Origin: Candidatus Electrothrix communis
Lineage (GTDB): Bacteria > Desulfobacterota > Desulfobulbia > Desulfobulbales > Desulfobulbaceae
Direction of reading: 5' to 3'
NCBI GenBank assembly: GCA_030644725.1
Contig: CP130629.1
Location: 3,301,501 to 3,365,500, forward strand
DNA: 64,000 nt
Shown: positions 50,268-54,605 of the stretch, one piece after another
How positions within the stretch are numbered: position 1 is the stretch's first letter
How the letters are laid out: each line of letters opens with the position of its first letter
Translations under genes and position numbers: made by a program
The notes under the pieces: generated by a model
What the model saw: only the letters and a program-made list of their open reading frames with translations
Database searches by the model: none
What the model was told of the DNA's origin: nothing

Positions 50268-50332
50268 GTTGCGTAGGTCGGATTGAGTACAACGAAATCA
50301 GAAAAGTTAAGAAATACGAGGTGTCTTGCTAC
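50268..50332 (+). repeat. Dispersed repeat family B, copy 1
   Basis: GTTGCGTAGG, then ATTGAGTACAACGAAATCAG, then TTAAGAAATACGAGGTGTC. Related copies at 51496 and 52316 share the core AACGAAATCAGA. It lies between two accessory genes. Confidence 0.72.
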
Positions 50333-50360: not shown

Positions 50361-51119
50361 TCAATGATTTGCAAACCAAATAACATAACTTCTTAAGGGC
50401 TGAAAATTCGCACCTTTTTGATCCATTGCCTCAAGATCGGCCAGTGGAAAAACATAATTTGACTTCTTCTTTGTAACTTTGACGAAAATGCCCCGCAAGT
50501 CATCAATGTATGAGTCTATTTTTTCTACCGTTATTCTGTCGCCCACTCGTAAAGGGCCTCTCTCTTGCAGCTCTTCAACCTCAGCTTGGAAAGGAAAGGT
50601 TAACACCTGACGCAGGTGTTTATCCCAGGCTTCAAGGGCAGCTTCATCATCTAAGGCAATCTCGCGTAATACTTCTTTGATACCTTCTCCTTCTTTGCCC
50701 AAATGATCCCAAGCGTGTTTTTCGTAAAGAATGCCGATTATTTCATCAACGTCATCTCTCGTATCGCGAGGTTCTGTTTTTTCAACATCAGTGGCGTAGG
50801 TATAGTATTGATGGTCTGGTAAAAAGTCAGGAATTGCGTTTTTGATGACGACAATTCAATGAGTTGCGATGCGAAAAAAGGGTTTTTGGGACTTTTTACG
50901 AATCCATCAGTATTGGTTCCAACCGAATCCTTCCAGTTCACAGTCTGTTATATGTGAGTCAGGTATGTTTTTTAATGTCAGGCTGTCCCAGTTGATATAA
51001 AGAAGATTATCTTCCTCGATTTCCGCAATCCTGCCTTGCCATCCGCCGATATCCATTCCAGTGTCTGGATCTTTAACACCTGCTTTCACCACAACGGAAT
51101 CATTGAGTTGGAAATTCAT
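50361..51119 (-). pseudogene. Calcium-binding-protein-like gene split by a MITE
   Basis: Two fragments of one gene. The 5' part (51119-50915) encodes MNFQLNDSVVVKAGV, GGWQGRIAEIEED and LEGFGWNQY. The 3' part (50803-50361) encodes TEPRDTRDDVDEIIGIL, FPFQAEVEELQERGPLRVGD and DDLRGIFVKV, ending in a WFANH-type terminus. Removing the 99-bp insert and one 6-bp duplication joins them in frame, giving 217 residues. From memory the family is annotated calcium-binding protein; function is not established. As it stands, translation ends at a TGA at the left junction. The 3' part alone lacks a normal start codon (a TTG at 50702 is the only one). Confidence 0.75.
50810..50908. mobile_element. 99-bp MITE with terminal inverted repeats and 6-bp target duplication
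   Basis: GATGGTCTGGTAAAAAGTC (50810-50828) faces GACTTTTTACGAATCCATC (50890-50908), matching at 16 of 19 positions. AGTATT lies directly outside on both sides (50804-50809 and 50909-50914). There is no coding capacity. A single arm, GATGGATTCGTAAAAAGT, is also at 52295-52312. The element interrupts the gene at 50361-51119. Confidence 0.87.
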
Positions 51120-51194
51120 AACATGTTCTTATGTTTTAACGTTGAATGCATAAGTGATTATCCGCTTTCGTTTCACTCAAGCGGATCTACTCTG

Positions 51195-51495: not shown

Positions 51496-51552
51496 GTTGT
51501 GTAGGGCTAATTGAGTGCAACGAAATCAGACAGGTTAAGAAATGATTTGTCC
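51496..51552 (+). repeat. Dispersed repeat family B, copy 2
   Basis: GTTGTGTAGG, ATTGAGTGCAACGAAATCAG, GTTAAGAAATG, diverging afterwards. Located between the 94-aa gene and the DUF1566 gene. Confidence 0.7.

Positions 51553-52294: not shown

Positions 52295-54605
<2,311 letters not shown>

What the first reader, a model, noticed from the sequence alone, without database searches (positions are those of the whole stretch)
50361..51119. Gene split by a 99-bp MITE that can be undone exactly
The element has 19-bp imperfect inverted ends and a perfect 6-bp duplication AGTATT. Removing it and one duplicate joins the two halves in frame (…GWNQY-YTYATDVEKTEP…) to a 217-residue protein. This fixes element borders, target-site length and the ancestral gene with unusual certainty. 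The loss looks recent, because both halves still read cleanly.
Basis: seen in the sequence. Interest (0 to 1): 0.75.

Follow-up and report, generated by a model that had tools for sequence, protein, structure and literature searches.

The report
A short hopping element splits a gene
In a cable bacterium, a 99-base parasitic DNA element has jumped into a calcium-binding-like gene and cut it in two; relatives still carry the uncut gene, so the event can be read exactly, but the kind of event is ordinary.

Summary
Window 50810-50908 is a 99-bp element with 19-bp inverted ends (16 of 19 alike) between perfect AGTATT copies. It interrupts a minus-strand CcbP-like gene (Pfam PF11535) after codon 70, with a TGA formed at the junction. 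Orthologues in three congeners, one of them Candidatus Electrothrix aarhusensis, lack the element, keep one target copy and align without a gap through the junction. Of 23 matches in the own genome, 18 are substantial, one identical to this copy. Exact 6- or 7-bp duplications flank 19 of 29 two-ended copies; shuffled flanks give 0.4 on average. A 1,893-bp insertion sequence in congener G003 has like ends and the same duplication rule and encodes an IS1182-like transposase. So this is a MITE, probably moved in trans by that family; in this genome only a 114-residue transposase remnant was found. My limited paper searches found no description of it. A near-constant length and a hairpin core that may be kept by paired changes are the only unusual traits. 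Otherwise ordinary.

The parts
50810..50908 (+). 99-bp MITE (non-autonomous transposable element)
   Evidence: 23 matches in the genome, 18 substantial, one other 100% identical; empty site in 3 congeners
50810..50828 (+). left 19-bp terminal inverted repeat
   Evidence: 16 of 19 alike with the right end; 18 of 19 with one end of the full-length IS in congener G003
50890..50908 (-). right 19-bp terminal inverted repeat
50804..50809 (.). target-site duplication, left copy AGTATT
   Evidence: single copy in relatives
50909..50914 (.). target-site duplication, right copy AGTATT
50839..50879 (+). inner hairpin of the element around a near-palindrome CAA(C/T)TCAATGAGTTG
   Evidence: RNAalifold and pair counts on 20 copies; mixed support
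50907..51119 (-). first half of the split gene (70 aa, ends in a TGA formed at the junction)
   Evidence: aligned with intact orthologues
50361..50804 (-). second half of the split gene (147 aa plus stop); CcbP-like domain at residues 52-144, about 50373-50651
   Evidence: Pfam PF11535, E 8.2e-14, above its cut-off
52295..52313 (+). solo end-like sequence GATGGATTCGTAAAAAGTT at the same place in two congeners; related but separate

Best explanation
A 99-bp MITE inserted by DDE transposition at the site AGTATT inside a CcbP-like gene of a Candidatus Electrothrix cable bacterium, duplicating 6 bp and ending the reading frame with a TGA built from the last target base and the first two element bases. 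The element carries no gene. It is moved in trans by the transposase of an IS1182-like insertion sequence of about 1.89 kb that has GATGG...AAAAAGTC ends and the same 6-7 bp, A-to-T target duplication. Shown: insertion, empty site, multi-copy family, like ends and like target rule in a transposase-bearing IS of a congener. Inferred: trans-mobilisation, loss of the protein's function, and that the transposase was present in this lineage recently and has since decayed.
For: Element and duplication. Empty site in G002, G003 and G004/E. aarhusensis with gap-free protein alignment. 18 substantial copies among 23 matches in the own genome; matches in 6 of 7 congeners, in 5 of them over the full length and in G001 one end only. 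Exact 6-7 bp duplications in 19 of 29 copies; shuffle mean 0.39, maximum 3. In G003 two identical copies of one IS type and five of a second (one damaged); 7 of 7 have both ends within 4 mismatches and an exact 6-7 bp duplication. Of 21 related transposase loci from other genera of the order, 15 (from 9 genomes) have both ends within 4 mismatches, 8 of them with an exact 6-7 bp duplication; backward-pattern controls in the same flanks gave 5 or more mismatches.
Against: No complete transposase with these ends was found in this genome, and the own IS1182-like elements whose borders were set by comparing four loci have unrelated ends. The MITE core is not found in any IS examined, so descent from a known IS by internal deletion is not shown. 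10 of 29 copies have no exact duplication. 6 of 21 transposase loci lack one or both ends within 4 mismatches, and 7 of the 15 with both ends lack an exact duplication. No transposition assay.
Confidence: 0.94

Rival explanations
1. The 99-bp unit is not chiefly a parasite but a small functional hairpin (RNA or DNA structure) that spreads with transposase help and is kept for a host or transcript role.
For: Near-constant length: of 29 copies 24 are 99 bp, three 98, two 100. Inner hairpin with 91.1% of cells paired, covariation score above 500 of 500 shuffles and above all six slid versions. Central near-palindrome conserved across subfamilies whose arms differ.
Against: The counts of pairs with two-sided changes (5; 162 of 500 shuffles as high, and 5 in four of the six slid versions) and of further pair types (72 of 500) are not unusual; much of the signal may be one old subfamily switch. 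End pairs were sought only 85-115 bp apart, so length outliers would be missed. No Rfam match in the window. Here it breaks a gene, and orthologous sites are empty.
Confidence: 0.15
2. The interruption is an assembly error or a minority variant and the gene is intact in most cells.
For: Reads were not available; the element is repeated in the genome.
Against: An assembly slip would not make an exact 6-bp duplication that obeys the family rule; the genome is one contig.
Confidence: 0.04
3. The two halves are separate working genes and the element merely lies between them.
For: Both halves are open and show no other damage.
Against: In the three closest orthologues it is one gene with no gap at the junction; the listed frame of the second half starts only at 50702, about 100 bases past the junction.
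Confidence: 0.04

Closest known systems
MITEs of bacteria (non-autonomous relatives of insertion sequences)
   Same: Short, no gene, terminal inverted repeats, target duplication, multi-copy, ends like those of a transposase-bearing IS.
   Different: Core not recognisably derived from the IS interiors examined; near-constant length; hairpin core possibly conserved across subfamilies.
IS1182 family insertion sequences (proposed mobiliser)
   Same: DDE transposase with DUF772 and DDE_Tnp_1_6 domains; best NCBIfam match is the IS1182 model; 1,893 bp.
   Different: 144 bits, below the curated cut-off of 270. Makes 6-7 bp target duplications, unlike IS1272, an IS1182-family member reported to replace inverted repeats in its target (PMC5678879, passages seen).

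Membership tests
MITE | Short element without a transposase gene, with terminal inverted repeats | tested here: met
   99 bp, 16 of 19 end match
MITE | Target-site duplication, with an empty site in relatives | tested here: met
   AGTATT twice; single copy in 3 congeners
MITE | Multi-copy and dispersed | tested here: met
   23 matches, 18 substantial
MITE | Ends and target length shared with an autonomous element | tested here: met
   IS of 1,893 bp in congener G003, and relatives in the order
MITE | Autonomous partner in the same genome (usual, not required) | tested here: not met
   only a 114-residue remnant found; orphan families are possible, so this does not exclude membership
MITE | Mobilised in trans by that transposase | not testable with these tools
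   needs an assay
IS1182 family (partner transposase) | Score above the curated NCBIfam IS1182 cut-off | tested here: not met
   144 bits against 270; called IS1182-like only
IS1182 family (partner transposase) | DDE transposase domains | tested here: met
   PF13751, PF01609, PF05598 above their cut-offs; catalytic residues not mapped
CcbP-like calcium-binding protein (the split gene) | Pfam Calci_bind_CcbP domain | tested here: met
   E 8.2e-14, 52.4 bits against 21.5
CcbP-like calcium-binding protein (the split gene) | Binds calcium | not testable with these tools
   inferred from the family name only

The most novel reading that the evidence does not exclude
The element is a length-locked, hairpin-forming unit: selection on a single-stranded structure (for transposition itself or for a transcript effect) fixes about 99 bp and the central palindrome while the rest drifts, so that the family has outlived its transposase in several cable-bacterium species and is kept moving by related transposases that come and go.
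Probability: 0.2. Interest if true: 0.5.

Novelty: new member of a known kind. Interest (0 to 1): 0.3.

Why it matters
It gives a gene loss bounded by a species split in an uncultured, electricity-conducting bacterium, fixes the borders and target rule of a MITE family present in several cable-bacterium species, and ties it to a transposase clade found in several genera of the order. That helps annotation: other split genes in these genomes can be read the same way. It does not change ideas about how such elements work.

Tried and rejected
Partner IS in the own genome: the end pattern at up to 3 mismatches gave 60 sites (22 for the backward control); by eye on that list no facing pair 1-3 kb apart, except the outer ends of two MITE-sized copies 1.2 kb apart. 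Of 18 IS1182-model matches in the own genome, eight loci were scanned for ends. An end-like site in L085 looked promising, but comparing L085, L086, L087 and L093 put the IS border elsewhere, so it was rejected. The other loci were not scanned one by one.

MITE core inside ISs, to show an internal-deletion origin: nothing beyond the ends and words of 12-16 bases.

Phylum-wide exact search for facing ends with 48-76 bases between them: 4 of 395 genomes, the own one (5 elements) and three with other cores of 107-110 bp. The seven congeners were not among the genomes drawn, so that call says nothing about them.

Rfam scan of the window: no match. Papers: no hit for cable bacteria with transposase, with miniature inverted-repeat, or for Electrothrix with inverted repeat; the end sequence gave only unrelated listings; some searches were seen as listings. 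PMC10926707 (passages) reports 120 predicted ISs in Ca. Electrothrix scaldis; the terms mite, mobile and transpos have no occurrence in its main text. PMC10580974, PMC11976967 and PMC12093952 were searched for terms only. Whether the window is Ca. E. scaldis was not tested. The library holds open-licence papers only.

Rows dropped: of 49 loci fetched with the MITE (L001-L020, L034-L062), 11 had no end pair 85-115 bp apart. Of the other 38, nine were left out: four duplicate fetches (L043, L049, L055, L061), one orthologous copy (L047), two single-end hits (L019, L040), one decayed copy (L016), one 113-bp relative (L020), leaving 29. Further matches that were not fetched as loci were not examined. 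The 20-row alignment leaves out L002 (identical), L004, L017, L018, L059 and the 98- and 100-bp copies.

Full report
What is there. Window 50810-50908 is a 99-bp element with ends GATGGTCTGGTAAAAAGTC and, reverse-complemented, GATGGATTCGTAAAAAGTC (16 of 19 alike), between two perfect copies of AGTATT (50804-50809, 50909-50914). It lies in a minus-strand gene, 51119 to 50361. The first half reads 70 codons and stops at a TGA made of the last target base and the first two bases of the element; the second half reads 147 codons to its stop with no other damage. Element plus duplicate are 105 bases, so the frame is kept across the insert, but two in-frame TGA codons close it. The second half matches Pfam PF11535, Calci_bind_CcbP, E 8.2e-14; the first half matches no Pfam family and neither half an NCBIfam family. 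The second half has no match in solved structures. Calcium binding is inferred from the family name only.

Empty site. The one locus found in the named genome collection is from Candidatus Electrothrix aarhusensis (L021, 88% identity over the second half), so the window belongs to a cable bacterium of that genus or very near it. There the gene is a single 218-codon frame with one target copy, CCAATACTATA. G004, whose contig has the same length as that record and is taken to be the same genome, and two further congeners, G003 (CCAATATTATA) and G002 (CCAATACTATA), also have uninterrupted genes of 218-220 codons, and the joined window protein aligns with them without a gap at the junction. A 50% identical, uninterrupted relative lies in G007 (L026). 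G005 has one partial copy with a stop inside and one paralogue-like gene; G001 has paralogue-like matches only; G006 (69% complete) has none. Altogether 7 of 37 genomes matched, the own one included, all of one genus. A longer paralogue of 240 codons stands elsewhere in the own genome (L031, 44%), so the cell may not lack the function entirely.

Age. The insertion is younger than the split from E. aarhusensis. The copy at G000:C1:3609027-3609125 is identical over 99 of 99 bases. Against E. aarhusensis, NG86 gives dN 0.062, dS 0.130 for the first half (70 codons; 5 synonymous, 10 other changed codons) and dN 0.066, dS 0.322 for the second (146 codons; 21 and 17). These counts are small and cannot be placed before or after the insertion, so no date follows.

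The family. The own genome (4.85 Mb, one contig) gave 23 matches at E up to 1, 18 of them substantial; five copies, this one included, are 93% or more alike. Among 37 genomes searched, 10 had matches at E up to 0.001: the own one, six of seven congeners (five over the full length; G001 one end only; G002 none) and three others outside the genus with 21-26 bp of one end only. After the removals listed under Tried and rejected, 29 copies with both ends remain: 24 are 99 bp, three 98 and two 100. Exact flank duplications of 6 bp (14) or 7 bp (5) occur in 19 of 29; shuffled flanks give a mean of 0.39 and never more than 3 in 2000 shuffles. In an earlier tally the first duplicated base was A in 18 of 19 and the last T in 18 of 19 (it counts one orthologous pair twice and lacks L004). 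The identical copy L002 lies between two same-strand open frames (117 and 105 aa as listed) with no Pfam match above cut-off and no NCBIfam match; it may split a second gene, but no empty site was sought. In a rough frame count 23 of 27 copies overlap no frame of 90 aa or more; that count also misses the window copy's gene, so it says little about how many copies lie in genes.

The partner. In congener G003 two places hold identical 1,893-bp elements with ends GATGGTCAGGTAAAAAGTC and GATGGAATAGCAAAAAGTC and duplications of 7 and 6 bp. They encode a 574-residue protein with DDE transposase domains (PF13751, PF01609, PF05598), whose best NCBIfam model is IS1182, 144 bits against a cut-off of 270. 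A second type, about 86% alike in DNA, has four intact and one damaged copy there. All 7 of these 7 have both ends within 4 mismatches and an exact 6-7 bp duplication. In the order, 17 of 257 genomes have matches at E up to 1e-50. Of the 21 such loci outside the genus, 15 from 9 genomes have both ends within 4 mismatches; 8 of the 15 have an exact 6-7 bp duplication and 7 do not. The other six lack one or both ends within that limit, some of them at contig ends. Among the 15, L114 has GTCGG instead of GATGG and may be a chance pair, and L118 spans only 1,297 bp. The backward-pattern control in the same flanks never came below 5 mismatches; over whole loci it came down to 4. Several loci are copies within one genome (five in G466, three in G553), so they are not independent. 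Ends and target rule thus go with this transposase clade.

In the own genome the transposase search (E up to 1e-30) found one piece of 114 residues (78% identity, G000:C1:3439987-3440328), with no such ends near it. The own IS1182-like elements whose borders could be set by comparing four loci have unrelated ends. The family looks orphaned here, although two identical copies suggest that it moved lately. Either the partner was lost recently, or a transposase not recognised here serves it.

The core. The MITE interior was not found in the ISs examined. Twenty 99-bp copies align without gaps. RNAalifold gives 29 pairs, 7 with paired changes. For the 14 inner pairs alone, which the transposase ends do not explain, 91.1% of cells pair (shuffle mean 82.9), 21 cells have changes on both sides (1 of 500 shuffles as high) and the covariation score is 0.336 (0 of 500; slid versions 0.127-0.223). 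But the number of pairs with two-sided changes (5) is reached by 162 of 500 shuffles and by four of six slid versions, further pair types by 72 of 500, and related sequences can beat such shuffles without structure. The single copies tried fold better than their shuffles, as inverted ends alone would give. I read this as suggestive of a kept hairpin, no more.

Comparison. IS1272, placed in the IS1182 family by a source cited in the paper, was reported to replace stem-loops in its target instead of making the usual duplications (PMC5678879, passages seen). The elements here insert plainly and duplicate 6-7 bp, as the empty site shows. My searches found no paper on MITEs in cable bacteria, in a library limited to open licences.

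Noticed in passing
window 50281-50299, 51509-51527, 52329-52347 (all minus): A second short repeat, GATTTCGTTNNACTCAATC: three copies at up to one mismatch within 2.1 kb around the split gene, and a weak fourth at 51164-51182 (+); 23 sites in the genome at up to one mismatch against 0 for the backward control. A like sequence lies before the orthologous gene in E. aarhusensis (L021 about 2700-2730). Nature unknown.
   Followed up: partly
window 52295-52313: A lone GATGGATTCGTAAAAAGTT end some 20 bases upstream of the Lcl_C-domain gene start, at the same place and nearly unchanged in G003 and G004: perhaps an old solo end, possibly kept as part of a promoter region.
   Followed up: partly
L020 (G000:C1:1145308-1145420): A 113-bp element with similar ends and a 7-bp duplication AACCATT: perhaps a second MITE type in this genome.
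   Followed up: no
L036 (G007) and L047 (G005): The same insertion with AACGGTT duplications and the same near flanks in two congeners: an inherited copy.
   Followed up: no
G000:C1:3607725-3607823 and 3609027-3609125 (L068): Two 99-bp end pairs 1.2 kb apart, one with diverged ends and one identical to the window copy.
   Followed up: no
L114: A related transposase with GTCGG-type inward ends and outward-facing GATGG-type ends; unexplained.
   Followed up: no
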